A DNA stretch of 64,000 nucleotides from Allacma fusca (Eukaryota; Arthropoda; Collembola; Symphypleona; Sminthuridae): the NCBI GenBank assembly GCA_947179485.1, contig OX359250.1, positions 47,713,450-47,777,449 on the forward strand. Direction: 5' to 3'. Each line of letters opens with the position of its first letter. The stretch's first letter is position 1. The translations under genes were made by a program, and so were the position numbers. The notes beneath the pieces were generated by a model. That model saw nothing but the letters and a program-made list of their open reading frames with translations. It was not told where the DNA came from and ran no database searches. Positions 10,447 to 54,351 of this stretch are shown in pieces.

Positions 10447-11638
10447 CAGAGCTGCGTTCAAGTCAAGTTATTTTAGACAACTTGACTTGAACTTGACTTG
10501 AACTTGAAAAAATTGTGTAAGCGAGGTATCCGCACTTGTACTTGATGAATCAAGTTTCTCAAGCAACTTGAGCATTCAAGTACTCGATTTTCAAGTTCAT
10601 TTTATTGAACTTGAACTTGATCATAATTTGACGTTCAAGTTGGGCACATAACTTGACTTGAATGTGAACTTGAACTTGTACTTGAACTTGATTATTCAAG
10701 TAATTTTTTCGTAAATTAATAATTAATACTACAAATTTCGTCCATAACTATTATAGCTAATAATGGCTAGGACGTGATTAGAATTAACTAAACAGGATGC
10801 ATTCTTTACTTTAAAATTGCCAAAAAATTTAAAATACTTGATCAAATAACTGTAAACATCGTAGTCCAATCTAATTTACTAATTTGCACTATTAAGAGTT
10901 TAGAAATCACATTACTGGCCTGCTCACATTAGTGTTGCACTCATCTGGTGAGTGTTATATTCATGAATATTTGTCGTCGTTAACTTTGCTGTTGATTTAT
11001 AAGGTTGTTCGTCTGCGCCATCATGTTTAATATCAGCAAAAATTATTTTTACATGAAATAATAAATTATTCTTAAACTTCTTCGTAGCTTCAGAACAGGT
11101 GAAGTGAACAATTAATTCATTTTTATAATGGAACAAGAACCCCGAGTATCAAAAAACATTTTTATAAAACAACAAGACGGAAATTTAAATTATTCAAAAT
11201 TCAAAGTATGGAAACAGGACACAAGAGATATTCTCGACCACTGGGCATCGTGGAGGCAACTTTAATGCCGATGGAATGAAAACAAATACAAAGATAACAT
11301 TTTTATGATGATTGACGCCCAATATTATTTTTAGTGGGAAGCAATGATGCCACTAATTAGGCATTGCTTACATTGCTTTTCAGGGAAAAAAACTCAAGTT
11401 ATACTCAAGTTTTATTCAAGTACTTCCATTCATTGTACTTGAACTTGACTTGATTTTACAATCAAGTAATAAATTATTAACTTGAACTTGATCGAACTTG
11501 AACTTGAAAATTCAAGTTAAAATTATAATTTCACTTGAACTTGATTTTCAAGTTCCAAAATTTTCTGCACTTGACTTGACTTGAACTTGATACGCACTTG
11601 AACTATTCAAGTTTTACTTAAACTTGAGCGCAGCTCTG
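10447..11638 (-). mobile_element. hAT transposon, ACTTGA-word family, copy 1
   Basis: Inverted ends CAGAGCTGCGTTCAAGT and its mirror with one change; perfect 8-bp duplication TTTAAAAC at 10439-10446 and 11639-11646, the hAT hallmark. About 250 bp inside each end is almost entirely ACTTGA/TCAAGT words in varying order. The middle holds a degraded BED-finger reading frame on the minus strand. At 1192 bp it is far shorter than an autonomous hAT and has no recognisable catalytic domain. Confidence 0.9.
10924..11136 (-). pseudogene. hAT transposase BED zinc-finger remnant
   Basis: A 70-residue open frame contains VHFTCSEATKKF near residues 10-21 and, near residues 44-64, YKSTAKLTTTNIHEYNTHQ. The latter resembles the end of a BED finger (aromatic, T-T-N-x5 spacing, final histidine). 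The cysteine pair expected just before it is lost (ADIKHDG). The related element at 19161-20041 shares the HFTxSEATK segment. Inferred to be exon 1 of the element's transposase, now decayed. Confidence 0.5.
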
Positions 11639-11646
11639 TTTAAAAC

Positions 11647-12715
11647 ATCCGTCGTTTCGTTTCAAAGGAACAATTGAACATAGTTTTGTAGCACAGTAAT
11701 AATTTGTGACGGATTCACAAGGTCATCTGACAAGTCAATACAATTTTGAATTAATTATTTTTGAAAATGCTTAGAGAATCGGGAACATTTAAAAATGAAT
11801 TCTTATCAGTCATTTATGAACCGAAGCAATTCTGGAACTCTCTGAAGTAAATTAACGTCGATTATAACTACACTAATCGAAGTTGCATTTGATTACAAAC
11901 TTAAGATTTAACTCCATTGTAATAATAAATCCGAGCCCAAGTTACAGTAGAACTAAATTCAAATTTAAATCTGACTTTGAGATTAAGTATCTATAGTTGG
12001 TCCTTCAAATCGAATATCATTGATTCCACTGTCATATAGAGTCTAATGTTTACAAACTCCATTTATTAGGTATATTATTTTTAATTATATATATTTTTAT
12101 TTATCCATTTCCTTTTCTATATTTCACAAGATCTGAAAAATATAGAAAATAAAGTGTATTCCTGGTTATATTGCTTGTATCTTCATATTATGTACATATA
12201 TTATAATTATTCTGGTATCCATTAGGTGTAATTTTATATTATGCAAAATTTAAAATATTCTCCAATTGGACTCACTCGAACAATTATTGAACATGGTTTT
12301 GTAAAACAGTACATCTGACAAGTCAGTATGATATTGAATAAATTTGTTTTGAAAATCCTTAGAGAATTGGAAATTGTTTTAAATGAATTCTTATACAATT
12401 TAAAATTGTCTGAATATTCACGCTGCTGAAAATATTTTTCTAGTAACATACTAAAGATATTTCGAACTTCAATTCCAGCCAAAAAGGAAAATCAAAAGAG
12501 GTCTTGAGGATACGGAAAATTGGGTACGGAGATGAAACCCATAGAGGGAAGAGTCCAGGAAAAAATTCCTTGTCCATATTTGTAATTAGATTCTCTTTAG
12601 AGTTCAGTCCCATTAAGCACTACATCCATGAAGATTTATAAATACAATAAATTACTCCATTATGAATTTATATTTGTGTTCCGTATTTTGATTTTTTCCT
12701 AAGTTGTAATGTAAC
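11647..12715 (+). repeat. Box-repeat array between two hAT insertions
   Basis: GTAGCACAG modules lie near 11660 and, in a poorer copy, 12285. A box lies near 12413. The part at 12480-12620 resembles the segment near 7030-7100. No gene recognised. Confidence 0.55.
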
Positions 12716-12915
12716 CAGACCTGCATTCGAACCAAACATTTTCATATTTCGTATTTGGTTTGTATTTGAATGTCAAATACAACTTTATTTGATATGTGAA
12801 CTAGTATTCGTTTTGTTATTGAAATTAATTTTATAGGACTATTCGAATACTTCAATCGAATAAGACAAACAATTCGAATTTGAATTGTGCTTGATATTCG
12901 AATAAAATTCCAGAT
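12716..12915. mobile_element. Single end of a hAT-like element (ATTCGAAT words)
   Basis: Starts CAGACCTGCATTCGAACC, a hAT-style end, and is followed for about 190 bp by TTCGAA, ATTCGAAT and TATTTG words. No mirrored end was found nearby, and the old repeat resumes at about 12940. It is probably a truncated insertion. Confidence 0.45.
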
Positions 12916-15500: not shown

Positions 15501-16474
15501 TAGAGCTTCCTTCGGGTTTCCGGAATCCCGAAGTTCCGTGTTCGGAAACGGAACGGAACAATTTCGGAACATTATCTTCTTTTCCGTCATAGAATCGGGA
15601 CAAAACCGGAACATGAGCACTTGTACCGATAATATTGGGACCGGGACGGTTCAGAGCATCGGTACGAAAAATGTCCCATATAATTTATGCCATCGGAAAG
15701 CGGAATAGTTCTGTTCCGTTCCGAACCGATCCCGGTACAATTTCTGAAGTGTCGCGCCATCGTTCAACTAGAATGAAAACACATTTCTTATCGCACTGGC
15801 TTGTAACCAGTTTTTTGCCAAAATAACGAAATTGGATGAACACAGATTTAATTTACGCAAATGCTTATATGTAATGCGAGTATCGTTTTCCATGAAAATC
15901 AACAGAACTAATTTTATTTAATAAACATGGGCATTAGCGATTTTTCTCGAAATGAAAATTCTGAAATCGAAATTATTAGCAGTAATGAAGCAAGCTTGCA
16001 GGAAATTAACACTGTTAGGCCATTGAAATCCACACGCTACAAATATTTATTGCTAAAAAATAATTAATAATAATTATATAATACTGCACAGTGGTTCTTT
16101 TTATATGGCGTAATTATTATTAAATATTATTTTATATAATTAAATAATAGCATTCCCTAGCATCCAATCTATTAAAAGTATATCCTGTATATTAAGTTGC
16201 CAGTAATTTGTACACGCATTTCACGTATATGTTGTGAACAATTCCGGGATATTTCGGAACGGAACGGGTTCGGAACGGAAAAACTAGCAGAATACGGAAC
16301 GGAACATAACCTGTAACGGAAAAAATACCTTACTCCTGTGTTCCGAACGGTGTCAGTTCACATGTTCCGATGTCCCGACAGCCGGAACGGAACCGGGACC
16401 AATATTATTTGTAGGTTTCGGAACGGAGCGGAATTTCCTACGGAACAAAAATGTTGAACACATTGGAAGCTCTA
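15501..16474 (+). mobile_element. hAT transposon, CGGAAC-word family
   Basis: Inverted ends TAGAGCTTCC and GGAAGCTCTA, with a perfect 8-bp duplication CAAAGATG at 15493-15500 and 16475-16482. Both ends are crowded with CGGAACGGAAC / GTTCCGTTCCG words for 200-270 bp. The unique AT-rich core carries a short coding remnant. It is nonautonomous. Confidence 0.88.
15927..16067 (+). pseudogene. Possible hAT transposase N-terminal remnant
   Basis: A 46-codon frame starting MGISDFSRNENSEIEIISS, acidic and serine-rich, then basic at its end (RPLKSTRYKY). It lies in the middle of the hAT element, where the other family (19656) has its first exon. A polar leader followed by a basic stretch is usual just before a BED finger, but no finger follows. 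This is inference from position and composition only. Confidence 0.35.
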
Positions 16475-19160: not shown

Positions 19161-20041
19161 CAGAGCTGCGTTCAAGTTCAAGTACAACTTGAATAGTTCA
19201 AGTGCGTATCAAGTTCAAGTCAAGTCAAGTACTGGCAATTTATTAACTTGAAACGTGAACATCAAGTTCAAGTACATTCAGAATTTTAACCTGAATTTTC
19301 AAGTTCAAGTACCATCAAGTTCAAGTAAACAATGCACTACTTGATGGCAATATCAAGTCAAGTTCAAGTACATGCAACCGATGTACTTGAATATAACTTG
19401 GGTATAACTTGAATATTTTCAAAAATTTTCTTTAAATTTCACTGCATATTTTGTAACAGTCCTATAATTTCTGCTCCAAATGAAATCCGGCGTAAATCGT
19501 TTAACCGCTTCATCATAACGTTTTTAGCAACATTTCATTCCCTATTTCAAATTGGTTAGATTCTTCTCGTAATAATTTACATACGCTGCCATACTTTGAA
19601 TAAAAACTTTATAGCTCGTTGTTCTATAAAGTGAGTTAAAGTGAACGTGTATACCATGGATTCCCACAATTTAATTAGTTTGGAAAATGAAAATACAGAC
19701 ATTCCAATCACTAATTCCTGTAAAAAACGTTCGCAAGTGTATGCACATTTCACATATTCTGAAGCTACCAAGAACTGAGCTATTTGAAATATCAAGTTCA
19801 CGTTCAAGTTCACGTTCAAGTTCACGTTCAAGTCACGTTTTGCGTCGAACTTGAAAGTCAAGTTGTTATCAAGTTCAAGTTGTACAAAATTAACTTGAAA
19901 ATCATGTACTTGAATACCCAAGTAATTCAAAGAACTTGATTCATCAAGTTCAAGTGCGGATATTTTTTTCTAGCAATTTTTCAAGTTCAAGTCAAGTTCA
20001 AGTCAAGTTATCTTAAAAAACTTGACTTGAACGCAGCTCTG
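19161..20041 (+). mobile_element. hAT transposon, ACTTGA-word family, copy 2
   Basis: Ends CAGAGCTGCGTTCAAGT and the mirrored ACTTGAACGCAGCTCTG, with a perfect 8-bp duplication GACATAAT at 19153-19160 and 20042-20049. It is inserted inside the pogo-like MITE. The outer 240 bp on each side consist of ACTTGA words. Same family as 10447-11638, opposite orientation judged by the coding remnant. Confidence 0.92.
19656..19778 (+). pseudogene. hAT transposase first-exon remnant
   Basis: A 40-codon frame: acidic leader, then CKKRSQVYAHFTYSEATKN before a stop. The KRSxVxxHF pattern is the usual opening of a BED finger in hAT transposases. It shares HFTxSEATK with the minus-strand frame at 10924-11136, confirming that both elements descend from one coding parent. 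The finger cysteines and everything after them have been deleted. Confidence 0.5.
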
Positions 20042-20774
20042 GACATAATATAAATAACAGTTTAATTGAAAATGTTTCATTTTTAGCTAAATTGGAGTCA
20101 TGTCGCGTTTCATTTAAGTAGTACATACTATGTATCTATGCGGAATAAGAATAAAAATAATTAATTTTAATAAATAAATAATAACATTTTTCCAAGTTTC
20201 CCACGCCACAAACACCGCTAACAAGAAAGGACAGGGTTGAATTAAGTATTTTCTGATTCTCAATAAGACACTTCTCAGATCATTTACAAAAGTTTTCAAA
20301 CTGTGAAGAATATAATGCCGTTAAAACTCTGAACGTCAGTTCTTTACTGAATGCGAAAATACATCTAAAAGGTTGGAAATGTGGATTTTCCTGGATGGTG
20401 TTTCATAAATGCCTGTAACCACGCTTGCACATATATTTATAATAATGCATTTCTTCCAGTCTTTTATAACGTCCGTGCAGAATTAAACAATGCAATTGTA
20501 GTGAAACTAAAGAGTAAAAATAACTTTTAAATGACATCACCAGTAGGTAAGTTATTTAGCTAGGTTTGACGCTTGGTAACGTTAACCTGACGTTATAAGG
20601 TTAGGCTTTTCACACTACGGCTGCAAAAAAAGCCACTATAAAGGAACTGACGTTATAACGAGTGACGCTTTAAAGATAGAAATGTTCATATAATGTAGCT
20701 TGGGAGGAACCCAGGATGACTTTATAGGGAGAGTGACTCTATAGGGAGAGACGCTATAAGGAGAGTCGACTGTA

Positions 20775-21200
20775 TGTGACATTTGACGCTCAGGATTAGT
20801 AAATTTTAGGAGCATAGAAATCCCAGCGACAAAAGATCCCGGCCATGAATTGTTTAGACACGGGCAAGCAAGAAAGTGAAAAAAGGTTTAGAAGTAGGAA
20901 ATTATATTTCATAAATGATACATTTTACTGAAGATGAATTGGCTACAGATTTATGTCGATCACAAAAGTAACATGTCCACATTTTAATCTGCAAATACTA
21001 ACGTAGTTACAGTTTCCTATTCTTAAAAAGTTTAACCATCGTAACGAATAACCTCATGCGTCCGGTAAAATACTAACTTTATGATAATTTCATTTTTATG
21101 AAGAGAAATTAATCTTACCTGTACTTCGTTAAGAGAGATAAGAATAATATGTTTTGACTGGTATATTTATGTATTTTGTGTACATAATTTGAGAATTGCA
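20775..21200 (+). other. Repeat flank between MITE and LINE
   Basis: Contains a box-like word (TTTGACGC) near 20780, followed by about 400 bp that I cannot match to other units. No gene seen. Confidence 0.4.
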
Positions 21201-21214: not shown

Positions 21215-23269
21215 ATGCAATTTGCTTGGAAAATCGTGTTTTATTTAATTTTTATAACCTCAGTGACCACTACAGTGGAAAAGGTACTTGATTCTAGAAT
21301 GAGATTCTATGTTCCATTTTGTGATCAACAGCGTGGTTTTACTAACAAACATGGTACTCTTATAAATACGACTTTATTACAAGAATGTCTTCAAAAGGCT
21401 AAAATTGAAAAATTGGACTACACTAATACATTCTTTGATGTTACTCAAGCTTTTGATAAGATAGGACACTTACATGCTTCAAATAGGATTCAAGCTAGAA
21501 GAGCACCAACAGCACTCAAAAACCTTACCATTAATTTCATGATTGAGAACTACACAAGGATCAATACAATTAAAGGAAAATCTCAAAAAATATTTTTCAA
21601 ATGTGGAGTAATGCAGGGGGCACCACAATCTCCATGGATTTATAACAACGCAGTTGATTATGAGATTATGGAATTAAATGAACCATCTGTAAAAAGTATG
21701 TATGGCTTCCAGCTTCACCCTGACTTCCCAAATGAAACTCTCCAAAATTTCGCTGATGATTCAGACATTTCTGCGAACTCTCGTACATCTTCCATCATTC
21801 TCAACCAAACATTTATTGGACTTTATAATGAATTAGGACTTCAAATTAATTCCAGAAAATCCCAACGTATTAGTCTGGTAAAAGGAGAATTATGTACAGA
21901 TGATCTGATTCTCAATGAAAATACTCGGATCAAGTGCATTGGAACTAATGAAATGGTGAAGTATCTTGGTATGAATTTTAATGATGAAATAGTATGTCAT
22001 GAAGAAAAATTACTCCATAAATTTCGAGGCCAAATTGAAAGAATAGTTGCAACTCCATTCCTTAATCCAGACCAAAAATTGAATATCATTAATGAATTTA
22101 TCTGGCCGATTTTAATTTTCCCCCTACAACATATTCCCTTAAATAAAATTTCGCCTTCATTCTTTGATAAAGTGGATAAAATCCTTAAAAGTGCAGTTAA
22201 AGAAATTTTGCAAATACCAACATCAACCCCTGACGCTATGATTTATTCTAGTAGAAAGGTAAAAGGATTGGGAATTATTAAAACATCATGGGAAGCAAAC
22301 ATTCAAAATTATAATGCATGTGACAATCTACAAAATAGTGGTATTGAAGTTCTGAATATAATAAGAAATTTTGACAATGAAAAAAATAAATGCTTGGATA
22401 ATCTAAACATGACTGAAGAATTCAAATCATCCCTTGTAGACATATTTCAAGATGAAGATACTTCAGAAAGTAATAGAGAAGAATCAATGAATAACACTGA
22501 CAAACAACAACCAAAAAATAAGTTAAAGAAATGTAAACTTATTAGGAATGAATTGCAAAAGATAGAATATGAAAAATGGAGTAAACTTCCAAGTAAAGGA
22601 CAAGGTGTCGCACAATTTTCCGAATGTCCCACTGCTAACAAATGGATAACTAATAAATTTGGGTTATCAACATCTGAATGGATAAATGCAATCAAAATGA
22701 ACGGAAACGTATTGCCTAATAAGTCAAATCCGGGTTACAGCCAAGGTAATAGCCATTGTAGATATTGCAATGAGTTTGAAACCTTAGGACATATCTTTGG
22801 TAAATGCCCCAGAGGTGAATTATTACGCAATAATCGTCATCACAGCATTCGCTCATTGTTAGCTACAAAATTTAAAGAAAATAAATATATAGTCCAAGAA
22901 GAAGTATATTGTGAAGATAAAAATGGGACAAGTAGAAGAGTTGACATTCTTGCTATTGAACCAAACTCTAAAAAAGGATACATTTTAGATCCAACAATAA
23001 GAATGGAACAAGATATTCACCAGCCTGAAAAAGTGAACCAAGAAAAGAAATCAATTTATGATCCATGCATTCCCTACTTTCAATCAAAATTCAATCTCAA
23101 AGAAGTGGAAACAATTGGACTATACATTGGGGCACGAGGAACAATTTCAAATTTTTTTGTAACATTCCTAAAACGATTTAGGATACCAATGAAAGTTATT
23201 GAAGAAATAGTATCTTTAGTTCTTAAGAACAGTGCATTAATTTGTAATAATCATCTTTATAAGTCATAA
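21215..23269 (+). CDS. RLE-LINE reverse transcriptase-endonuclease (N-truncated)
   Basis: 684 codons without a break. Reverse transcriptase: QRGF at 39-42; motif A FFDVTQAFD at 73-81; motif B GVMQGAPQSPWIYN at 131-144; motif C FADD at 179-182; motif D LGLQINSRKS at 207-216; YLGMNF at 250-255; thumb GLGI at 351-354. A charged linker spans 385-455. Zinc knuckle C515-x2-C518-x7-H526-x4-C531, as in R2. Restriction-like endonuclease: RRVDILAI at 574-581 and LDPT at 591-594 (acidic pair D577 and D592), then KKSIYD at 611-616 and GARGTI at 639-644. The family function is nicking target DNA and copying the RNA from the nick. Motif B has QGA where QGD is usual. The frame begins just before the RT, so this is not a full-length protein. 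The ATG spans the insertion junction and its first residues make a fortuitous signal-peptide-like stretch. Confidence 0.88.
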   Translation: MQFAWKIVFYLIFITSVTTTVEKVLDSRMRFYVPFCDQQRGFTNKHGTLINTTLLQECLQKAKIEKLDYTNTFFDVTQAFDKIGHLHASNRIQARRAPTALKNLTINFMIENYTRINTIKGKSQKIFFKCGVMQGAPQSPWIYNNAVDYEIMELNEPSVKSMYGFQLHPDFPNETLQNFADDSDISANSRTSSIILNQTFIGLYNELGLQINSRKSQRISLVKGELCTDDLILNENTRIKCIGTNEMVKYLGMNFNDEIVCHEEKLLHKFRGQIERIVATPFLNPDQKLNIINEFIWPILIFPLQHIPLNKISPSFFDKVDKILKSAVKEILQIPTSTPDAMIYSSRKVKGLGIIKTSWEANIQNYNACDNLQNSGIEVLNIIRNFDNEKNKCLDNLNMTEEFKSSLVDIFQDEDTSESNREESMNNTDKQQPKNKLKKCKLIRNELQKIEYEKWSKLPSKGQGVAQFSECPTANKWITNKFGLSTSEWINAIKMNGNVLPNKSNPGYSQGNSHCRYCNEFETLGHIFGKCPRGELLRNNRHHSIRSLLATKFKENKYIVQEEVYCEDKNGTSRRVDILAIEPNSKKGYILDPTIRMEQDIHQPEKVNQEKKSIYDPCIPYFQSKFNLKEVETIGLYIGARGTISNFFVTFLKRFRIPMKVIEEIVSLVLKNSALICNNHLYKS

Positions 23270-23903: not shown

Positions 23904-24708
23904 CAAGCATGGGAATCGGAATTTTATATTCGAAAATTTGAGGATTTTAACTCATTGGAATCCTAAATAATTCGTAGGAAGTATTTTAATTCAAAATTCC
24001 ATTCAAAAAGATTTTTGGAATCGGAATTATTATTCAATTTTTTTTACTGAATTCCGATTAAAATAAAGTATTGTTTTCAATGGCACATTCTTATTTTCAG
24101 TGTACATACTTAAACATCAATTTAAAATTGTCGCAATTTTGAATTACAAGGTAAAGCTAATAAAAGAGCATTGGCGAACGTTTTCTTCATCCGAAAAGAA
24201 CATGCTTCTATTTAAAATAGAGGCGAATTATTTTAGGCGGTTTTTTAAAACGGTTGTGCTCAAAACTATTGTTTGTCCTACAAATTAATTACTCAAGTAC
24301 TTTAAATCGTTGATACTAAAGATATTTTTAGGTACCTAAAGATATCTTTAAGAGAAGAAAACTTGTAATTTTGGAGCTCAAGTATTAGTTGAACATATGT
24401 TTTAACACTTAAATTGATACATACTTAATGACCTGTGCGGGAAACTAGCTTCCCAAAACATTGATGATATCATGTTTCGAATGTTGAATGTTTTCCGTAA
24501 TTAGTCTCTGTATTTTCAGTATGCTAGCAGTATTAAAATAAATATTCAAATCGGAATTCATAATGAACGAATACTCGAGGATATTTAAATCCGTATTAGA
24601 ATTCATATTTTTCAGTATTGCTAATTATAGGTATTTTACATCGGAATTCTTCGCCTTGAATATTTTAATTCGAATTAAAATTCATATTTTTTCGATTTCC
24701 CATCCTTG
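23904..24708. mobile_element. hAT MITE, GAATTC-word family
   Basis: Perfect 8-bp duplication GTTCACAT at 23896-23903 and 24709-24716. The ends CAAGCATGGGAATCGGAA and the mirror of CAAGGATGGGAAATCGAA form an imperfect inverted repeat. The outer parts are full of GGAATTC, ATTCGAATT and TTAATTC words. No transposase frame is seen. Confidence 0.8.
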
Positions 24709-25712: not shown

Positions 25713-26504
25713 CAGTCGACTCTCTTTATAACGACATCGACAAATCTCATAAAAAGTGACGTTATAAAGGAACGACGTTATAGAGGCACATAAAATAAAT
25801 AACGGTTTAATTTGAAATTTTTAAATGTTTTTAGGCAAATTGGAGTCATGTTCATTTGTAGCACATACTGGGCATCTATACGGAATAAGAATAAAAATAG
25901 CTAATTTTAATTAATAAATAATAACATTTTTCCAAATTTTAAAAGCCAAACACCGCCAACAACAAAGGACAGGATTGAATAAAGTATTTTCTAAATCTCA
26001 ATAAGACACTTCTCATATCATTTATAAAAGTTTTCAAACAGTGAAAAATGTAATTCCGTTAAAATTCTAAACATCAGTTCTTTACTGGATGCAAAAATAA
26101 ATCTAAAAGGTTGAAAATGTGGATTTTCCTGGATGGGGTTTAATCAATGTCGTTAACCACGCTTCCACATATATTTATAATACTACATTTTTTCCATTTT
26201 TTTATAACGTCGGTGCATAATAAACAAATTAGTGAAACTAAAGAGTAAAAATAACTTTTAAATGACATCACCAGCAGGTAAGTTATTTAGCTAGGTTTGA
26301 CGCTTTGTAACGTTAAAATAACGTTATACGGGCACGCTTTTCACCCTACGGCTGCAAAAAAGCGACCTTATAAAGGAACTGACGTTAAAACGAGTGACGC
26401 TATAAAGGTCGAAATTATCATATAATGTATCCTGGGAGGATTCCAGGATGACTTTATAGGGAGAATGACTCTATAGGGAGAGACGCTATAAGGAGAGTCG
26501 ACTG
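25713..26504. mobile_element. pogo/Tigger-like MITE, uninterrupted copy
   Basis: Same family as 19079-20772: CAGTCGACTCTC start, GAGAGTCGACTG end, internal sequence collinear throughout. TA follows on the right (26505-26506), but the left flank reads TC, so the target duplication has decayed. 792 bp, no transposase frame. Internal TATAGGGAGAG words cluster near the right end. Confidence 0.85.
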
Positions 26505-27213: not shown

Positions 27214-27609
27214 TTAACCCTGAGGTTCCCAACCTATTACCAGCGTGTCCAAAAAATCAATTTTTTGTAAATAATTCCGAACTTCGACAGGAAAAGTTTT
27301 GAACATTTAAGCGAAATTTTTTGTACTTGTTCACTGATTTGTTAGCTTGCACCTGACCGAATTTCAGGTCATTAGGTTGCATACATCAAGAGCAAAAAAT
27401 TCCGAAAGAGGTCAACTTTGACATTTTTCCGCCATTTACAATGCTAAGTAAATAGCCGTATACTCTCCACAGGGGCCTCGAACATATTTTGTTTTCAAAT
27501 TTGTAAATATTTTACTAAAAATAACTACACCAACAGGTCCATATCCTTACTGAAGTTACTAACTTCATTTACATGTCATTCTAACCTTGCTGACCTGTTG
27601 ATACAGTAC

Positions 27610-28077
27610 CGTGACCCAACAGTGACCTAGTATATCAATATCAAACACACACCGGTTCTCCTGCCCAAACCATATTGGATTCGGTCCCGAATAGACTAGA
27701 TCGTCTCCAAAATGTATGAACTAGTCGCCTGCCAAGTTTGGTTCCACTTGGTGACCTCATGACCCTGCAGTGACCTCATGAGTTATAATCAAACCCATAC
27801 CGGATTTCCCATCCCAAAAATATGGAAACCGGTTCGGAATAGACTAGATCGTCTCCAAAATGTATGAACTAGTCCCCTGCCAAGTTTGGTTCCACTTGGT
27901 GACCTCACGACCCTGCAGTGACCTCATGAGTTATAATCAAACCCATACCGGATTTCCCATCCCAAAAATATGGAAATCGGTTCGGAATAGGCTAGATCGT
28001 CTCCAAAATGTATGAACTAGTCGCCTGCCAAGTTTGGTTCCACTTGGTGACCTCATGACCCTGCAGTGACCTCACTG
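27610..28077. repeat. 148-bp tandem repeat, about 3 copies
   Basis: The word AGACTAGATCG (AGGCTAGATCG in the third copy) recurs at 27693, 27841 and 27989, exactly 148 bp apart. The second and third copies are nearly identical; the first is more diverged. Lies inside the piggyBac-like element. Confidence 0.85.
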
Positions 28078-28312
28078 GTCAACATAGAACATTAGTTAGC
28101 TGCCAGTTCTGGAGGATTACGACGTAGAAGAAAACGTGGCAGGAGACTATATTACACGAATTTAGACAGTTGTAGTCAATTATGTACCGATTATAATACG
28201 TTTTTGCTAGGAAACCCGGTACGTGTACAATGCTGACCCATGATGTCATTGATGGACCATGAGCTCACGGAAGCAATTTTATCATCGTTTAGGTTGAAAC
28301 ATCGGTATTCAC

Positions 28313-28435
28313 CAGTGCTCGTCATGGGTATGAGTACTACTGGGGTAAACGGGTACGGATATGGGTATTACCCTGGTATCGATTTAGTGTACCCAAAGAA
28401 TGTACGGTACTTCACAGGACTTTGGTCGGCTTAAA
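28313..28435. mobile_element. End fragment of the GTACCC-word hAT
   Basis: CAGTGCTCG followed by GGGTA words. Matches the reverse complement of the right end of the element at 45445-48000 over about 70 bp (shared GGGGTAAANGGGTACGG). Only one end is present. Confidence 0.55.
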
Positions 28436-32690: not shown

Positions 32691-32692
32691 TA

Positions 32693-42372: not shown

Positions 42373-43507
42373 CAGACCTGGGTAACCGAAAAATAAGGTT
42401 TCCGTTAGTTCGTCATAAGTTATTGTCAATTTTTTTCCGTTTTTGTTTTCGTTATTTGAAAATACCGTTATCGGTTAAAACGGGTTTTAATCAAAATGAA
42501 TTCGGTTAAACGGTTAATAACGGTATTCAACAATTTTTATCGATCTATTTTTAAATTGGTTTGATTAGACTTATAACACAAGTATTATGCATACGTAAGG
42601 CTTCCATCCGACCGGATAAATCGAATATCCGATCCGAATCCGATCCGAACCGAAATTTTCGAATAAATTTTCTTATTATCCGATCCGACCGTCCGCGGAT
42701 CATCCGATCGGATGGAATGCATACCTTTCAAATCCACGGAACTTCATAACGTCATTCACCATCATTCGTCTTACAGATAGGATAAATGCTAAGGCCGAAA
42801 ACAGGCGTTCAATTCGACCCACCATTCGAATTAATCACACTTTACGACTTTTTTATTTCGTTCTTAATTATTTGTTTTCTCATGTTAGGTTAAACCTTCC
42901 AACAATGCTGTTCTACTGGAAACAAGCCGTATATGCAGATTCTTTGTTTATGCATTTATTCCACAGAAATACTTCAACCGGGTATTCCTCGTCATCAGAA
43001 ACATTAGCTTCAGGCTGGTCGACAGCTTGTTAATAAAGTGGAACTGACAATTAGCACTATTAGCAGAAAGAAATATGCTGAAATTGAAAAATAATTAGCA
43101 AAAGCAGCTATGTTTGTATGAAAATAACAATACACAGGTCGAAATACGCTTAAATTTAATAAATCTAGTAATTTATGTGTACTAGGTAAGTAATCAACGT
43201 ACCGACATGTACTTACATACACATATAAAGTACGTTTAGAATTAGGAACGTATTCAAACGACATTAGTTCACGTTGAGTTCAATCGACAATTGGAAATTG
43301 GAGTACTGGTCTCCTTTACAGTTTAAAAAAACTAAAATAACCTTCTTTTTCCGTTTCCATTTTTACTTAAACACATTTATCGTTTGTTTTCGTTTATCGT
43401 AAATATTTGTTTTTTTGGTTTTCGGTTGGATTTCAAAAACCGTTATTGCCATTTTTCCGGTAATAACGTTATTCCATAACGCTATACCATAACGTTATCC
43501 AGGTCTG
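42373..43507. mobile_element. hAT-like element, ACCGTTAT-word family
   Basis: Ends CAGACCTGGGTAACCG and mirrored CAGACCTGGATAACGT. Flanking 8-mers GTACAGAT (42365-42372) and GGGCAGAT (43508-43515) agree at 6 of 8. Both ends are filled with CCGTTAT, CGGTTAAAACGG and AATAACGG words. No transposase is recognised. A smaller foldback lies inside at 42595-42716. Confidence 0.7.
42595..42716. mobile_element. Short CCGATCCGA-word foldback element
   Basis: 122 bp bounded by the direct repeat ATGCATAC (42587-42594 and 42717-42724). TCCATCCGACCGGAT near the left and mirrored TCCATCCGATCGGAT at the right form the inverted repeat, with CCGATCCGA words between. On the left the inverted repeat starts 8 bp inside the direct repeat, so the exact ends are uncertain. 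Confidence 0.55.
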
Positions 43508-43900: not shown

Positions 43901-44454
43901 TTAAAATGTAATAATTATTTTTGAGATGGGATTATAATTTTGAGACTCTCTGTAAAAAGTGTAAGTACTTGTACGTACAGTCAGTTGCGCAAGGGTTAAT
44001 GGAAAAAAATGAGGGTTATAGGGAATTCGGGGAGTTGGAGGTGCTCAAAATGAAAAGAGAAGACCAAAGTTTCCTTGCTTTTGTTTTTAACCAAATACAT
44101 ATTTCCAGGGAACAACATTTTTCTTCATAACCTCCAGCTCTTCTTACTTTCTTCCCATTTCTCCCTTTCCTTACTTTCTCCGCTTCCCCATAATCTTCAC
44201 ACACTCAACTCCTCACTTCAGCTTCCTTGTCTCCCTCTTCAACTCAATTATTGATCCTGCCAATAATCTCAACAAAATAACTTATGGCAAACTTCTCTTC
44301 AGTACCGCACGCGTGTCAAGGATAAAAAATCCAACTTACGTACAATTTTCAAACTTGACTTCAAATTCTAACCTAAAAGTTTAACTTCAGCCCCTAACAT
44401 AATTCACTTGAAACTTCAATCTGAATTTTAAAACTTGAATTTTTAAACCGACTT
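43901..44454. other. Spacer into minisatellite region
   Basis: Pyrimidine-rich tracts (44120-44260), then the first loose ACTTGA-type words from about 44340. No gene. Confidence 0.4.
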
Positions 44455-44790
44455 TGAGAATTGAAACTCACATTTGAAACTTGACCTTAAAATTTGTAGC
44501 TAAATTTGAAACTCGATCTTAAAAATCAAAGCTTACACTTGAAACGTGACCCGAAAATCAAAGCTCATTTTTGAAACTTGACCTTGAAAATCAAAGCTCA
44601 CACTTGAACCTTGACCCTAAAAATCAAAGCTCACACTTGAACCTTGATCCTAAAAATCAAAGCTCACACTTGAACCTTGACCCTAAAAATCAAAGCTCAC
44701 ACTTGAACCTTGACCCTAAAAATCAAAGCTCATACTTGAAACTTGACCTTAAAAATCAAAGCTCATTCTTGAAACTTGACGTTTGTAGAA
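44455..44790. repeat. 33-bp minisatellite (ACTTGAACC word)
   Basis: CAAAGCTCACACTTGAACC recurs every 33 bp in the best part (about 44570-44760), grading into diverged copies on both sides. Open frames across it are read-through of a period divisible by three. Confidence 0.85.
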
Positions 44791-45013
44791 ACTTGAACTT
44801 GAATTTTAAATCTGACCTTGAATCTGTGCTGAATAAACCAAAACTTGACATACTTAAATGAAATTTGGCTGTGAAACCTGAACTAGAATTTTAAACTTGA
44901 CCTTAAAACTGACCTTCGTTCTAGAATGTTTTAGACTTGACTTGCAACATTGACTTTCCATTTCAAACTCAAACTTGAAACTAGAATAATTCGAAAAAGT
45001 AACATTCCTTAAA

Positions 45014-45112
45014 TAAATTTCATATTTGACCCTGAAATTCATACTTGACCCTGAAATTCATACTTGACCCTGAAATTCATACTTGACCCTGAAATTCATA
45101 CTTGACCTTGAA
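45014..45112. repeat. 19-bp tandem repeat
   Basis: CATACTTGACCCTGAAATT repeated about five times with few changes. Confidence 0.85.
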
Positions 45113-45436
45113 ATTAAACTTGAAATTGGGATTTCAAGTGAAAAATTGAAACTTGTCCTAGAATGTAGTATTATTTGACTTGAAAATGCTTACACTTGAG
45201 AAGTTGGAAATTGCTGAAAATATTGGCACTGACGAATAGTTTGGGGGGAATGGGAGGATTAGAAAAACTAAAGGAGAGGGTGCAGGTGAGGATTTTGGGG
45301 ATAAATTATATTCCGGGAGCATATGTCGTGTGCTGAGGAATTCTCCAAGGAATTGACCAAGGACGTGATGCGAGGACCATTATTGTAAGTATAATGGAGA
45401 CTAAGGGTAGAATTTCGCAAGCTACAAGTGGAGACA
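45113..45436. other. Spacer before the GTACCC hAT
   Basis: A few residual ACTTGA words to about 45190, then unique DNA. No gene seen. Confidence 0.4.
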
Positions 45437-45444: not shown

Positions 45445-48000
45445 CAGTGCTCGGACTGGGTACAAAAACCGTGCACCCGTACCCATACCCGATTACCCGG
45501 GTAAACTATTTCAGTACCCGTACCCGTACCTGAAACTACAATGTAGTACTTGTACCCACAATTTACCCGTACCCGTAATGTACCCAAAATCTGTACCCGT
45601 ACCCGAGTACTTATTGTTTGTACCCGGGTATTACTCGGGTACTGGAAGTTTGGCGGATTTAAAATCCCCGACGACATTTGCCTGCCCAGCTGAAAAATTT
45701 TAATATGTCAATTTTTTGACCTCCATTAAAAATATCCGGGATTTTGGGAATTTTCCCTAGGCGTTAAAAGCATCCTATTTGAATTTAAAAAAATCGTTTA
45801 AGGCCTTTTGCGATTTATTTTTAATAAACACTGACGAAATTGAAATGCTACTACGCCAAAATAATAACTTGCTGAATGAAATTAAATGTGTTCTCGCGAA
45901 TTGGTTATTAAACAATTCTTGTATGGTGTAAGCATAAACAATTGGGACGAATTCTTTAATACTAAACTCATCTATCTTGCTTTTCAACTTGAAACAATTG
46001 TGTTCCCGGCTAATCGTTTTCTCAAAAATCTTTTAACACAAGTCCGGTGTTAAGAACTGTTGGCATTACCTTACAAATAGGACGCAAGGTTAGTAAAGTA
46101 AAGGAGGAAAGTAGAATTTCCTGATCATGCCAGTTTTCCATCAACGATATAACGTAATTACAAAACAATATATTTGAACAATGTGTACAGAAAATGTTAT
46201 ACGGGAAAATTTGAGTTGATCATAATTTTTTCAAGTCAAATATTGTATCAAATAAATGTATATTTATTCCGAACTTATCTCGTAATACGTATTTAAATAA
46301 TTGTAATGTTACGCTCCCAATGAAGCTAATTAAATTGAATCTCAAGAACCTGCCCGTTGAAACTCTTCCTTGATGAGCTTCACTGCTTAAGTCGGTAAAC
46401 AGGCGATTTGACTAACTCTATTTCTTTATTAGATTCCTGGGAAGAATAATAAATTATAGAAGCATTAGATTGCAACTACCACGTAATCATAAATGAGACG
46501 AAGCTACTTGGATCTGTCACTAACGCAAGTATCTGTATACAAAGAAATAAGCAACTCCGTGGCTGGTAGGTCTTATTGTTAGCCATAGTAGTCCATCCCA
46601 GCAGAAATCCTTGAAGTACCCAAAAATACTCGGGTACAGGTATTTTACATAGTGATACCCGTATCTATTGGGTACTACCCGATTGTCACTGAGTGAGTAC
46701 CCATACCTGTACCCGTACCTGTACCTAGGGTATGTCGATTTGAAAATTCCCGGCATTTTGGCATTTTCATTTCAGGGCGAGGGCGGCATAATAGGGCATT
46801 TTGGGCATTTTCATCGAGGAAAAATTGGGCATTTTGGGCAGAATCGTGGAATATAATAGAACAATCTATACAATTTGACAATGAATTTGAAAATTTCTTT
46901 GTAATTTTGGAGAAAAAGCGTTCGAAATTATCTTGAAAATTTTATTCTGTATGTCATTATTTTGACGAAGTTAATTCAACCGGTGACGAAATACGTTTGC
47001 ATACCATAAGTCATATTGAACATTACGATTTGCGAAACACCTGTACAGTACACGATACGGCTATAAATAAAAATATTCTAGGAACTATTTTTCCAAACTG
47101 CAGATGATGTAAAATGAACTTCCACCATACTAGGAATATTCACATACCCATATGAATGTATTACTGTTATCAGAAATGTCTTTTCGGTTAAAATTTGAAC
47201 CCATACGGTAATTTTTGTATACACCATAAAACTACAAACAACAATATTTGGGGGACCCGTATGGAGGATGTATATTGGTTTCTACTCGAGCAATTTTTGG
47301 CTAATCGTTGCAAACTGTAGACAATAGTGATGTAGAATAAAATGAGTATAAAATTCAGCTACATCACGCATTAAAATTTTGACTGATCCCTTACCATCAG
47401 ATTTTTACGTTAGGAGTTCGTATTTCAAAAGAAAATAGTATTTCTGCCCGCCCGTCAGTGACGCATATGCAAATTCATTTCATATATTTGTTTACATAGA
47501 AATTTATTTTTGTAGGAGTGATAAATGATATCACCTCATGTCAATGAAATTTAATTGATTTGACTGTTTTCGCCATTATAATATATAAACGAACAAGCCA
47601 ATAACCAGACATCCATATTTGTAACTTTTCCTTAGCTGCGCTTCCATGCATTTGGATGGATATTCTGAATATATGCTAGTAATCCAATTTTGGTGCCATG
47701 AAAATGCCCAAAATGCCCAACTTGCCCTGCCCAAAATGCCCAACATCATGGCATTTTCAAAAGCTGCCCACATGCCCAAAAACTGGGCAAAAACAGGCAT
47801 TTTGGGCATTTTCAGCTGGGCGGGCAAATACTGCAGGGCATTTTCAATCGACATACCCTACCTGTACCCACTTTATTGTCTTAAATCCAGAGTACCCGAG
47901 TAGTGCCCACGTACTTGCGAGTACGCAGCTTCTGTACCCGGGTAGTTCCCATAACCGTACCCATTTACCCCAGTATTACCCGTACCCAGTCCGAGCACTG
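45445..48000. mobile_element. hAT transposon, GTACCC-word family, with nested hAT
   Basis: Ends CAGTGCTCGGACTGGGTAC and its mirror; perfect 8-bp duplication GAAATGGA at 45437-45444 and 48001-48008. The left 250 bp and the right 150 bp are dense in TACCCGTACCC and ACCCGGGTA words. A second hAT sits at 46726-47860, so the element proper is about 1.4 kb. No catalytic domain is recognised. Confidence 0.9.
46726..47860. mobile_element. hAT transposon, GGGCATTTT-word family, nested
   Basis: Ends TAGGGTATGTCGATT and exact mirror AATCGACATACCCTA; perfect 8-bp duplication CCTGTACC at 46718-46725 and 47861-47868. About 110 bp at the left end and 150 bp at the right are packed with GGGCATTTTGGGCATTTT or its complement. 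Inserted in the GTACCC element after that element was in place. The core shows no recognisable transposase. Confidence 0.92.
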
Positions 48001-48008
48001 GAAATGGA

Positions 48009-48439
48009 TATAGGAATGAAGGGGAGAAAGTTGAAGGGAAGGTATGCGTGGAAAATTTGGAGAGAGAAAGGCGGAAAATTTGGAAGGAACGTGTTCGTCT
48101 CGGGATGAAGTGAAGGCTTAATTGAGGGACAGGAGCAAGAACGTGGGTAAGTGCATTATGTGACTCAGGCCCTGACAGAACATTAACACCGATTTCCCAT
48201 TAATCTAGTTCCAAACACTTGGACATCCACCAACACTTCCTCAGCCCCAAAAAACTTTCCGAACTCAAGTCCTGTATTTAGAGAGTGACCTTCATTTGTA
48301 ATGATTGAGTCTTAGTCTTTAAATGGATCTCCCCACAATTATTTTAATTACCTACGTAAACGAACCATTTCATTATATTTCCACTACCAATACTCCAATA
48401 CAAGTGCCAATTCCTTCTAAATTACCCTTGAACTTGAAC
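48009..48439. other. Spacer
   Basis: Purine-rich GGAAGG/GGAGAAAG text to about 48110, then unique DNA. No gene seen. Confidence 0.4.
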
Positions 48440-48920
48440 TATAGAGCTTCTCATACGAATATGAACTTGACCTTGAACTCTATTTGAATTTGACCTGACC
48501 TTGAACTCAACTTGTACTTGACCTCGTCTTAAACAATACTTAAAATTGATTTGGTCTTTACGCTTAAACTTAACCTTCAACTTTCCTTCCCTTGACCTTA
48601 CATTTCACTTGAACTTGACCTTAAATTTCACTTGAACTTGACCTTAAATTTTACTTGACCTTAAGTTTTACTTGAACTTGACCTTAAATTTTACTTGAAC
48701 TTGACATTAAAATTCACCTGACCTTGACCTTAAATTTTACTTGAACTTGACATTAAATTTACATGAACTTGACCTTAAACTTCACCTGACCTTGGCCTCA
48801 AACTTCATCTGAACTTGGCCTCAAACTTCATCTGACATTGACCGTAAAATTCACCTGACCTTGACCTTAAATTTCACTTGACCTTAAATTTACATGAACT
48901 TGACCTTAAACTTCACGATT
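48440..48920. repeat. Degenerate ACTTGACCTTAAA minisatellite
   Basis: CACTTGAACTTGACCTTAAA-type units of about 23 bp, with shorter and longer variants (ACCTGACCTTGACC, CATCTGAACTTGGCC). About 20 units. Confidence 0.8.
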
Positions 48921-49545
48921 GCGTGGAAATTTGCATGTAGACCTTGAACTGGTACGTAACTCTGTTGCCACGTGTAACGGCAATAGATAAAGCATTTTGG
49001 ATTTTTAAATTCACGTTTTTGCAGATTCCTGGTAAAAAATCAAGTGACTTTTGTTGGGCTTTGGATAGGAATAATTTGGTGTGCTTGAATTGACTTTTAT
49101 GAAGTAGACTGTCTCGAAGGAACGTTTTGGAAAGAAAATAGACGTAACCAAAGGCAGACGTTGAAAATTACTTGTGACGCTCCACACTACTGCTTTTTGA
49201 TCCCATCTCGGGATTGTCGGGATTCCTCCCTCTCCCCAATGTCTTCACAAAATCCATTTCAATGTCTACATTTTTATTATACCTCTCTTATTTTCTTTAC
49301 AATTTCACTTCCATCAAATTTTCTATTGACGAGTCATGAGTGAAATCCTCTTGCATCGAAATAAACTCGGATATCAAAGCATGCATTGCGTTCAAATTAT
49401 TGTTTCCCAACCAGAGACATATACACTACGGTTCCATGTCATTAATTGGGAGTCCATCCAAATCCCAGTAAGGACTTTTCATCTCCAAACGTGCTTCAAT
49501 TTAATATCTTCCAGAGCTCCTCAACGGCCAATTCCTTCCTCTAAT
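48921..49545. other. Spacer
   Basis: Unique-looking DNA without a recognisable gene or repeat. Confidence 0.4.
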
Positions 49546-50250: not shown

Positions 50251-50289
50251 TCCTAATCATTTCAAACCTAGGTATACACTTTCATTATA

Positions 50290-50600
50290 GGCACGATTAA
50301 AATCCAAGTTGCACTTGAAATTCAAGTCGCACTTGAAATCCAACTTGGACTTTAAGTGCAATCTAAAATGCACCTGAAATTTAACTTCCAACTTGCACTA
50401 GAAATTTAAAATTAAAAATGCACTTGAAACTCAAAATTCACTTGAAACCCAAAATTCACTTGAAACCCAAAATTCACTTGAAACCCAAAATTCACTTGAA
50501 ACCCAAAATTCACTTGAAATCCAAAATTCACTTGAAATTCAAAATGTACTTGAAACTCAAAATGCTAATGAAATCTAATCCGCACTTGAATTCAAACTCA
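50290..50600. repeat. 18-bp minisatellite (ACTTGAAACCC word)
   Basis: CACTTGAAACCCAAAATT units, exact for about five copies at 50430-50530, diverged on both sides (CACTTGAAATTCAAGTCG to the left). Confidence 0.85.
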
Positions 50601-51597
50601 AAATAGCTCCCCCCAAATCTATTAATTTTTTACTTGAACTGGGTCTTGAAAAATTAAGGTCACAATTGAACCCAACTTTATATTTGCACTCGATCTTGAC
50701 AACCAACTTTGCCTTTCAACTGTAACTAGCACAAGAATTTAGCTGCACTTGAATTCATATTCAAGGCCATACTTGAACCCACTCATAATTAACACCCATT
50801 ACACTCCAACTCAGATTTGACAACCTGACCTCCAAAACAACCTCAAATTTAGAACTAACTTTCTCAAGTGCAAAACTGGAATTCACCCCTTAACTCTCAT
50901 ACTTGTCCTCACACACGACTTGAACTTCACCTAAAATCTAAACTCCACTCAAACTCCAATTCACGGGTCCTTACCATTGGATGCATTAGTCCATTGACAT
51001 TTGACAATACTGAAAGTCCCTCACCTTTTCACACGGAAAGAAACACAGTTTCTCAAACACAAGCCTTAAAACTACCAATATATTTCTAAAGCTTGTCTCC
51101 GGCCAGGCGGAGAAAGGTGCTATATTTCACAATTGTACATACACAAACAGACCTATAGAAATTCAACTTTTTCCTCTACATACGCAACATCCTTTCACTT
51201 TTAACTCACTCTATCTATCCTATAGGAACAAAGAGACCATTTTATTCATTTCCACCCAACTGTGTCTCAATGCTGTAAAGAGTTCCTCGCATTTTAAAAG
51301 ACCCCACTGAAAGCATCACTTCTACGAAGAATTCCACAAGAAAATGCTCAAAATTCCAATGCAATTCCATTTCAACCCCTGAATTTTTACAGGACCCTGC
51401 CCAATTTTGCCACCCCAATAGATAACCCTGCGTACAATCAAATCCAAAATGGACTAAATATCTATTCAAAAGTTTTTTTAATAAATATTTACTCCTCCTA
51501 ACTCTTGGCCCATTTATAATGTAGAGCTTGAAAAATACGCGAAGTCTATTGAGACTCGGAAAGTGGTTTACTGACTGAGGATAAAATTCTTGAGATC
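50601..51597. other. Spacer with scattered ACTTGA words
   Basis: Loose ACTTGAA and TTGAACCC words to about 50970, then unique DNA. No gene recognised. Confidence 0.4.
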
Positions 51598-52001
51598 TTG
51601 GGAAAACTGGCATGATAAGGAAATTCTACTTTATTAAAAATAAATCCCAAAAAGCCTAAAATGATTTTTTTTAAATTGAAATAGGATACCCTTAACGCCT
51701 AGGAAAAATTCCCAAAATCCCAGGCATTTTTAATGGATGTTAAATTCAAAATTTTCAGGTGAGCAGGCAGATGTCGTTGTGGATTTTAAATCGGTCGAAC
51801 TTACAGTACCCGAGTAATACCCGGGTACAAACAACAGGTACTCGGGTACGGGTATAGGTTTTGGGTATATCACGGGTACGGGTAAATTGTGGGTACAGGT
51901 ACTACATTGTAGTTTCAAATATGGGTACGGGTACTGAAATAATTTACCCGGGTACGGGTTTGGGTACGGGTACACGGTTTCTGTACCTAGTCCGAGCACT
52001 G
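51598..52001. mobile_element. Deleted, inverted copy of the GTACCC-word hAT
   Basis: Reverse-complement relative of 45445 to about 46130. The outer end CAGTGCTCGGACTAGGTAC lies at 51983-52001. The region 51634-51830 matches the complement of 45620-45830, then the match jumps by about 270 bp to the complement of 46095-46125. Only one terminal repeat is present. Confidence 0.75.
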
Positions 52002-52790: not shown

Positions 52791-53215
52791 TTAGTTGATG
52801 GTAAAATTCAATGTAACCCTAAAATTCCATGTGACCCTAAAATTCCATGTGACCCTAAAATTCCATGTGACCCTGAAATTCCATGTGACCCTAAAATTTC
52901 ATATGACCCTAAAATTCCTTATAATCCTAAAATTTCATATGACTATAAAATTTCATGTAACCCTAAAATCCTAGTGGCCCTAAAATTCCTTGTGGCCCTA
53001 AAAGTTTATGTGATCCTAAAAGACCTTTGACCCTAAAAATCCTATTGGCCCTAAAATTCCTTGTGGCTCTAAAATTCCTTTGACCCTAAAGTTCCTTGTG
53101 GCCTTAAAATTCTCTGTTTGCTTGACCTTGACATTCATGTTGGCCTTAAATTGTCAGTTAACGGTAAAATTTCAGTTGATTATAAAATTTGTCTGACCTT
53201 AAAATAAATAATATT
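52791..53215. repeat. 18-bp minisatellite (CCCTAAAATTCC word)
   Basis: CCATGTGACCCTAAAATT units, regular at 52805-52900, then increasingly diverged (TTGTGGCCCTAAAATTCC) to about 53215. Confidence 0.85.
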
Positions 53216-53945
53216 CTAATTGGAATTTAAAAACGAAGCGAACTTGAACTTTGTTAGGAGAGCTTGAAATGGACTTGAAAGTGAAGTGATACTTGAAGAG
53301 TTGTTTTGGTTTGTGATTACGGGGATTTTGGTTGTTTGGAAGGAAGTTGGAATGTGTGGGAGATGAGAGAGGGCTGAAATGGGAAAGTAATTAGAGGACG
53401 GTAATCCTTAGGGTTTATTCATAAAGCTTAAATGAGGACGGGAAGAGAAACTGGAGTTAGACTCTATAACTCATTAAACACAATGTTTAATTTCCTAGCT
53501 TAGGATTTATATTGCGAGGAAGTTGGTGGGAGTTAAACTCAAGCAGGGGTTTGAAATGTGCATGTTTTGTGTATTTTCACACGTTATTTCTGTAGAAAGT
53601 CCTATTCCGAAACATTACAGTAGTCCTGCTCCCAGAAATAAGCACTCTCTGAATGCAAAAGTCCTTGAGATTTTTTGGCTACGAAAATGCTTTTTTCCCC
53701 GAGGTTTTTTAAAACACTTGCTCCGTATAAATATAGCCCGCATCTGAGGATCCATACGTTCAAATGGGGGCTATAGAGAAGCGTAAGATTTCCCTGATTT
53801 TACCTCTGGTATAATTAGCGTACGTGTGTATGGGACTTGGGACGACTGTAAGAAAGATCGTATGAAAAGCACTTGGAACATGCACAGTTCTAGAAAAAAG
53901 GACAGAAATCCCAAAGATTTTATTACAACGCGTGAGTGAGAGAAT
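53216..53945. other. Spacer
   Basis: Unique-looking DNA. Purine-rich stretch 53300-53460. No gene supported. Confidence 0.4.
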
Positions 53946-53953
53946 GTTATTAC

Positions 53954-54351
53954 CAGGGTTGGCAAGTGGCAAGAATTGGCCTGGTCATTATTGGTTAAAA
54001 TCCGGTTCTAACCGGTTTGGACATGTTGCATAGGTTGGTATAAAATAGTCATAATTAATATTATCCAAATAAATCCACTGTCCAATAAAAACCGGTTTTA
54101 ACCAAAACGTACCACCGGATTGGCTAATATTACGCATGCATGAACACGGGGTTGCCAAGGGGCAAGAAATGCCCTGGTCGTTATTGGTTAAAATCCTGTT
54201 CTAACCGGCCTGGACCAATTGTATAGGTTGGTATAAAATGGTCATAATTAATACTATCCAAATAAATCCACTGTCCAATAAAAACCGATTGTTGCCATTT
54301 CTTGCCACTGGCTTGGCCTTTATTGATAAAATCCGGTTTTTTCCAACCCTG
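53954..54351. mobile_element. hAT MITE, GGTTAAAACCGG-word family
   Basis: Ends CAGGGTTGG and mirrored CCAACCCTG; perfect 8-bp duplication GTTATTAC at 53946-53953 and 54352-54359. Internally a direct duplication with an offset of about 191 bp (GGTTAAAATCC, TAACCGG and CCAAATAAATCCACTGTCC occur twice). No coding capacity. Confidence 0.9.

What the first reader, a model, noticed from the sequence alone, without database searches (positions are those of the whole stretch)
10447..54351. Each hAT family has ends packed with its own short iterated word
Six insertions with exact 8-bp duplications (10447, 15501, 19161, 23904, 45445 and 46726), plus 42373 and 53954, carry dense family-specific words in their outer 100-270 bp: ACTTGA, CGGAAC, GAATTC, GTACCC, GGGCATTTT, ACCGTTAT and GGTTAAAACC. 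hAT transposases are known to bind short subterminal repeats, but filling the ends almost solid with a word that differs by family is striking. It suggests co-evolution of a BED-finger specificity with expanding binding-site arrays. Sequence facts are seen; the mechanism is inference.
Basis: partly seen in the sequence, partly recalled or inferred. Interest (0 to 1): 0.75.

Follow-up and report, generated by a model that had tools for sequence, protein, structure and literature searches.

The report
Transposon ends packed with family-specific words
Many jumping genes of the hAT type in this genome carry at both ends a dense block of one short DNA word that differs between families, and the words change in step with the enzyme that moves each family, which suggests that they are its docking sites.

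Summary
Observation: right in outline, uneven in detail. Seven insertions have exact 8-bp duplications and hAT-like tips (A-G below); H (42373) matches at 6 of 8. Words are very dense in A, C, B, E and F, weak in D and H, absent in G. A and C are one word family. In 30 fetched copies of A the words fill both ends and stop at the duplication.

Best explanation: arrays of binding sites for each family's own transposase (binding is inferred). Shown here: complete transposase-bearing elements carry such words at both ends, and two of them encode a BED finger. H derives from one transposase-bearing type. In A, word bases diverge about 2.5 times less than neighbouring non-word bases. Across 25-28 transposase families word similarity follows transposase similarity (p = 0.0002), whereas the adjacent DNA does not.

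Not shown: that BED residues set the word, or any binding. Not every family has an array: 4 of 29 located ends and 11 of 20 other loci failed the test.

hAT subterminal repeats that differ between elements are known; what looks new is the density and the parallel diversification within one genome.

The parts
10447..11638 (.). A: non-autonomous hAT-type element, 1192 bp, duplication TTTAAAAC; ACTTGA arrays in both outer 250 bp
   Evidence: duplication, 11 of 12 tip match; 16 and 20 words; 30 copies
10447..10716 (.). A 5' tip and ACTTGA array
   Evidence: aligns to the 3' end of transposase element L097 (62 bp, 79%)
11389..11638 (.). A 3' ACTTGA array and tip
   Evidence: aligns to the 5' end of L097 (217-column alignment, 70%)
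15501..16474 (.). B: element of 974 bp, duplication CAAAGATG, CGGAAC words (5 and 8)
   Evidence: the 40 scored genomic matches are near full length at 96-100%
19161..20041 (.). C: element of 881 bp, duplication GACATAAT, ACTTGA words (18 and 17); shares ends with A but not the interior
23904..24708 (.). D: element of 805 bp, duplication GTTCACAT; weak GAATTC-like words, not significant in unbiased tests
42373..43507 (.). H: element of 1135 bp, imperfect duplication (6 of 8); internally deleted derivative of the L088-type hAT transposon; degenerate AACGG/AACCGTT words
42595..42716 (.). 122-bp insertion nested in H, duplication ATGCATAC, CGGATC words; nearest word profile is that of L029/L079
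   Evidence: alignments of other H copies commonly break at H position 222
45445..48000 (.). E: element with duplication GAAATGGA, interrupted by F; GTACCC words (11 and 11)
46726..47860 (.). F: 1135-bp element nested in E, duplication CCTGTACC, GGGCATTTT words (3 and 5)
53954..54351 (.). G: 398-bp element, duplication GTTATTAC, hAT-like tips, no word array found

Best explanation
The window holds several non-autonomous hAT-type elements that are moved in trans by transposases encoded elsewhere in the genome. Each end consists of a short, widely shared tip (roughly yARnGnTnnn, where cutting is expected) followed by an array of many irregularly spaced copies, in both orientations, of a word proper to the family. 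The array is most likely a cluster of binding sites for the N-terminal DNA-binding region (a BED finger in the cases seen) of that family's oligomeric transposase. Many weak sites raise local occupancy and tell the enzyme which ends are its own. When a transposase lineage splits, its specificity and its word drift together, so the genome holds many recognition systems side by side. Arrays can grow by slippage, as in copy L061. Shown: anatomy, copies, shared words in transposase-bearing elements, lower divergence within words, parallel diversification. Inferred: binding, the role of the BED finger, and separateness of the systems.
For: A: 26 of 30 copies with exact duplications, 13-21 words per end, 11 words in 58 flanks. 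Lower divergence in words over 29 aligned copies of A: mismatch per site 0.0011 in the tips, 0.0079 in words, 0.0202 in non-word end bases, 0.0319 in the interior; 1 of 507 circular shifts is as low; with the word mask taken from each of five single copies, 0-4 of 507. Transposase loci: 25 of 29 located 3' ends have a 6-mer in excess of dinucleotide shuffles at p <= 0.035. Complete elements: L029 (C9:21627328-21630666, exact duplication ATTGTACT, CGGAT words seen at both ends, BED 45.3 bits), L015 (C1:53999515-54003088, duplication GTCTAATG, AAGGCA words seen at both ends), L097 (ACTTGA 13 and 13, BED 30.5 bits). H matches L088's 3' end (87.4% over a 231-column alignment) and L109, upstream in the same locus (85% over 106). 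Word similarity follows transposase similarity: 0.100 vs 0.021 and 0.133 vs 0.031 for pairs at or above vs below 50% identity, p = 0.0002 each; adjacent inward DNA p = 0.66 and 0.25.
Against: No binding data. The rank correlation over all pairs is weak (rho 0.099, p = 0.057; 0.147, p = 0.012). Only 9 of 28 families have the same nearest neighbour by word and by protein. D, G and H lack significant arrays. 4 of 29 located ends (L007, L021, L081, L088) miss p = 0.05, among them H's own relative L088, and 11 of 20 loci without a located tip show no array. L109 has no Pfam BED hit, only a sub-threshold Hermes DNA-binding hit (15.9 bits, cut-off 20.5); the L015 exon has no Pfam hit. Tips were located by eye, partly helped by the arrays, so the 25 of 29 is not blind.
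Confidence: 0.75

Rival explanations
1. The arrays are neutral simple repeats that arise by slippage near the tips and are carried along by descent.
For: Copy L061 has a 5' end grown to 42 words in 557 bp, largely as a run of 11-bp units. The window holds many unrelated tandem repeats with the same word. Most families are young enough that similarity by descent explains why copies share words (for example B at 96-100%).
Against: Word bases diverge less than non-word bases in the same ends, a test that descent does not explain. Words occur at both ends, in both orientations, and stop at the duplications. Related transposases keep related words although the adjacent DNA has lost similarity.
Confidence: 0.12
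2. Competition for transposase drives the density: non-autonomous elements gain extra sites and out-compete the parent for the enzyme.
For: A has 33-41 ACTTGA per copy in its two 270-bp ends, while the related transposase-bearing L097 has 13 and 13 in 250-260 bp. A single copy with a grown array exists.
Against: L097 is a diverged relative and not the direct parent (70-79% in the ends); lengths compared differ slightly; one comparison only. L029 and L078, at transposase loci, are themselves dense.
Confidence: 0.3
3. The words serve host factors, silencing or transposase expression and not the transposase itself.
For: No binding data exclude it; short repeats can attract host factors (general knowledge).
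Against: The words sit at both ends, also in elements without a long open frame (no open frame of 130 aa or more lies wholly within A, B, C, D, F, G or H; the only one overlapping, at 47698-48108, runs over the word-rich ends of F and E), and follow the transposase tree.
Confidence: 0.1

Closest known systems
Maize Ac/Ds (PMC3260210, passages read)
   Same: 8-bp duplication, short tips, and multiple copies of AAACGG within the terminal 200 bp that bind the transposase cooperatively; non-autonomous partners share tips and repeats
   Different: One family with one word; here many families in one genome each have their own, with up to 20 exact 6-mers in 250 bp
Hermes (PMC10368747, passages read)
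   Same: BED domains bind subterminal repeats (AAG(T/C); 17 in the left and 14 in the right end)
   Different: A 4-bp degenerate motif that needs specific positions; here longer exact words, packed
Herves (PMC3143072, abstract and passages read)
   Same: Transposase binds a repeated subterminal motif CG/AATTCAT, sufficient as a tetramer; the paper states that binding regions differ between hAT transposases
   Different: Few copies per end; one family
CGG-binding proteins derived from hAT transposons (PMC8097297, section 3 and passages read)
   Same: BED plus Hermes-type domains show diverse word preferences on arrays; motifs of the four hAT proteins that worked match subterminal regions of their own elements; related proteins have similar motifs in several cases
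   Different: Protein-side evidence across species; here DNA-side evidence within one genome, from the element ends alone

Membership tests
hAT superfamily (window elements) | 8-bp target-site duplication | tested here: met
   Exact for 7 of 8 elements, 6 of 8 bases for H; 26 of 30 copies of A exact
hAT superfamily (window elements) | short terminal inverted repeats with a yA-G-like tip (motif recalled) | tested here: met
   10-12 of 12 bases match between the tips of A-G; tips listed
hAT superfamily (window elements) | encoded hAT transposase, or a demonstrated hAT parent | tested here: inconclusive
   Met for H (parent L088/L109); a diverged relative for A and C (L097); only word-profile resemblance for B and E; none found for D, F, G
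hAT superfamily (transposase loci) | hAT dimerisation domain | tested here: met
   PF05699: all 150 scored of 860 candidates over the cut-off
BED-finger hAT elements | N-terminal zf-BED | tested here: inconclusive
   L097 30.5 and L029 45.3 bits (cut-off 20.6); no hit for L109 or the L015 exon; other word-bearing families not tested
hAT elements with subterminal binding repeats (Ac, Hermes, Herves type) | transposase binds the repeated word | not testable with these tools
   No binding assay possible
hAT elements with subterminal binding repeats (Ac, Hermes, Herves type) | repeats clustered in both ends | tested here: met
   A, B, C, E, F; not met for G, weak for D and H

The most novel reading that the evidence does not exclude
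A single genome holds dozens of hAT families that have split into parallel, mutually separate recognition systems. The transposase's DNA-binding finger and a packed array of its word change step by step together (for example ACTTGA against ATTTGA, or CGGATA against AACCGA/ATCCGA, between transposases about 70% identical over about 60 aligned residues of the dimerisation domain). The ends alone would then give a natural table of BED-finger recognition, and arrays grow because crowded sites win the competition for enzyme.
Probability: 0.4. Interest if true: 0.7.

Novelty: new variant of a known kind. Interest (0 to 1): 0.55.

Why it matters
If the word is the binding site, then each family's binding specificity can be read from its own ends without an experiment. 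A genome with many such families would offer a ready training set for how BED fingers recognise DNA, a question that binding arrays have answered for only about 22 proteins (PMC8097297, section 3). It would also show how new transposon families become separate from their parents, and supply orthogonal transposase and end pairs for laboratory use.

Tried and rejected
Species: a search of the genome for the bantam microRNA family gave nothing, but the answer itself says that this does not show absence; the organism remains unidentified. Six large contigs between about 48 and 82 Mb were seen, nothing more.

BED search: PF02892 gave 35 matches from 150 scored of 327 candidates, few near the word-bearing loci, so a residue-by-word comparison could not be made.

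Helical spacing: over 23 families, same-word sites 10-11 bp apart are in excess (27 against 12.7 by random placement), but 20-22 bp are not (17 against 17.9); not pressed, since 11-bp slippage units could give this.

Neighbouring arrays: L015 and L018 first seemed to carry ACTTGA and GTACCC ends; reading the sequence showed that these arrays begin with tips of neighbouring elements. L076 was dropped for the same reason, and L089, L093 and L027 because their arrays lay far downstream with no tip located; the earlier run that included L076, L089 and L093 (31 families, one domain mis-cut) gave rho 0.123, p = 0.018.

In one search the 3' end and middle of E included the nested F, so those E values are not used; one search is.

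One search failed with an error and was rerun corrected.

Literature: seven paper searches listed nothing whose title or shown abstract reports within-genome diversification of such words; only four papers were opened, in the parts named.

Full report
What is there. A scan of the window for exact 8-bp duplications that flank inverted tips finds, among many chance hits in low-complexity DNA, seven clear hAT-type insertions: A 10447-11638, B 15501-16474, C 19161-20041, D 23904-24708, E 45445-48000, F 46726-47860 (nested in E) and G 53954-54351. H (42373-43507) has the same kind of tips and a 6-of-8 duplication. No open frame of 130 aa or more lies wholly within A, B, C, D, F, G or H; the one at 47698-48108 runs over the word-rich ends of F and E. 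They look non-autonomous.

Are the words real? In A's column-majority sequence 259 of 508 end bases lie in ACTTGA words. The same word is common elsewhere in the window in ordinary tandem repeats, but those are almost one-sided in orientation, whereas the element ends mix both.

Copies. The genome search scored the best 40 candidates per element, so all counts are lower bounds. For A, 30 copies were cut out: 26 have exact duplications, each different end holds 13-21 words, and the flanks are almost free of them. B's 40 matches are near full length at 96-100%, D's at 82-85% apart from itself, F's at 89-94% apart from itself, G's at 91-96% apart from itself. C's ends match those of A copies L048 and L063 at 84-87% while the interiors differ, so A and C most likely use the same transposase.

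Constraint. Over 29 aligned copies of A (L061 left out), mismatch per site to the column majority is 0.0011 in the 16-bp tips, 0.0079 in word bases, 0.0202 in non-word end bases and 0.0319 in the interior. Sliding the word mask round the ends gives a difference as large in 1 of 507 shifts. With the mask taken from five single copies and divergence measured in the others, 0-4 of 507. The deficit holds for each of the four bases. This is expected if elements with intact words are the ones that transpose.

Transposase-bearing relatives. The hAT dimerisation domain was found at 150 scored of 860 candidate places, all over the cut-off. Seventy of these were fetched (30, 20, 20). Of the 70, 29 with a tip located by eye and 20 without were tested; 21 were left out, being close copies of tested loci or, in L077, partly withheld. 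Of the 29, 25 have a 6-mer in excess of dinucleotide shuffles (p <= 0.035; floor 0.005), with words such as CGGATA (13 in 244 bp), ACTTGA (13), CGAGTA (11), TAAGTA (9), GAAGGC (8) or GGACCA (7); L007, L021, L081 and L088 fail at 0.05. Of the 20 others, 9 exceed the largest of 40 shuffles, but some of those arrays may belong to neighbours; 11 do not. Some of these 11 may have ends beyond the fetched stretch, or be host genes; this was not settled.

Complete elements. L029 (C9:21627328-21630666, 3339 bp) has an exact duplication ATTGTACT, CGGAT words at both ends and a BED finger of 45.3 bits. L015 (C1:53999515-54003088, 3574 bp) has the duplication GTCTAATG and AAGGCA words at both ends, but its first exon has no Pfam hit. 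L097 has tips CAGAGCAGCG, 13 ACTTGA in each end, a BED finger of 30.5 bits and no duplication. L088 with L109 is the source type of H: H's 5' end equals L088's 3' end at 87.4% over a 231-column alignment, and a 106-column stretch of H's interior equals L109 at 85%; Pfam finds no BED in the L109 stretch, only a sub-threshold Hermes-type domain. A's ends align to L097's in crossed order (A 3' to L097 5', 70%; A 5' to L097 3', 79%).

Co-diversification. Word profiles (5-mers, both strands, corrected by dinucleotide shuffles, 16-bp tips removed) were compared with identity of the dimerisation domain in families under 75% identical. With 25 families, pairs at or above 50% identity have mean similarity 0.100 against 0.021, permutation p = 0.0002; the 244 bp just inside the array give 0.016 against 0.021, p = 0.66. 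Adding three arrays without a located tip gives 0.083 against 0.022, p = 0.0004. Allowing one mismatch in 6-mers gives 0.133 against 0.031, p = 0.0002, control p = 0.25. The rank correlation over all pairs is weak (rho 0.099, p = 0.057, and 0.147, p = 0.012), because the signal lies among close relatives. Nine of 28 families have the same nearest neighbour by word and by protein. So words persist longer than ordinary non-coding DNA but do change, as in ACTTGA (L097) against ATTTGA (L106) at 73% domain identity.

Assignment of the window families by word profile: A and C to L104 and L097 (0.62-0.72), H to L088 (0.55), the 122-bp insertion in H to L029 and L079 (0.49), E to L078, L105 and L102 (0.33-0.40), B to L094 and L105 (0.38). 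D (0.26), F (0.16) and G (0.20) have no convincing partner; for F and G the interior scores as high as the ends.

How it most likely works. The transposase recognises the tip for cutting and the array for identity and occupancy. Structures and binding work on Hermes, Herves and Ac support such a division in other hAT elements (PMC10368747, PMC3143072, PMC3260210; passages read). That BED-type fingers of different hAT proteins prefer different words, matching their own ends, has been shown on binding arrays (PMC8097297, section 3 read). The present data agree from the DNA side, but the binding itself is inferred. Array growth by slippage is seen in L061: 42 words in 557 bp at the 5' end, largely in 11-bp units, duplication 7 of 8.

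Verdict. A real and general feature of many, not all, hAT families here. The kind is known; the density and the parallel set of words within one genome are the new part.

Noticed in passing
42595-42716: A 122-bp insertion nested in H with an 8-bp duplication ATGCATAC and CGGATC-type words; its word profile is closest to the complete BED-bearing element L029.
   Followed up: partly
L061: A copy of A whose 5' array has grown to 42 words in 557 bp, largely as 11-bp tandem units; it raises the thought that hAT ends can seed satellite arrays such as the 11-bp-based one at 61806-62500.
   Followed up: partly
31920-32693: Inverted arms of 72 nt (94%) with CAAAATGATCTA-type repeated words on both sides; may be another word-ended element.
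   Followed up: no
27227-29662: Inverted 25-nt arms (96%) 2.4 kb apart, around a 148-bp tandem repeat at 27682-28074.
   Followed up: no
51630-51945: A second, inverted, GTACCC-rich stretch similar to the 5' part of E.
   Followed up: no
21215-23269: Open frame of 684 aa that looks like a non-LTR retrotransposon reverse transcriptase with a C-terminal endonuclease (by eye, not searched).
   Followed up: no
44353-45194, 48432-49040, 50313-50918, 61808-62491: One-orientation tandem repeats that contain ACTTGA at many sites, around and beyond E, not bounded by hAT tips.
   Followed up: partly
20717-20775 and 26448-26496: Two short tandem arrays of the same 17-bp unit TGACTCTATAGGGAGA(G), about 5.7 kb apart.
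   Followed up: no
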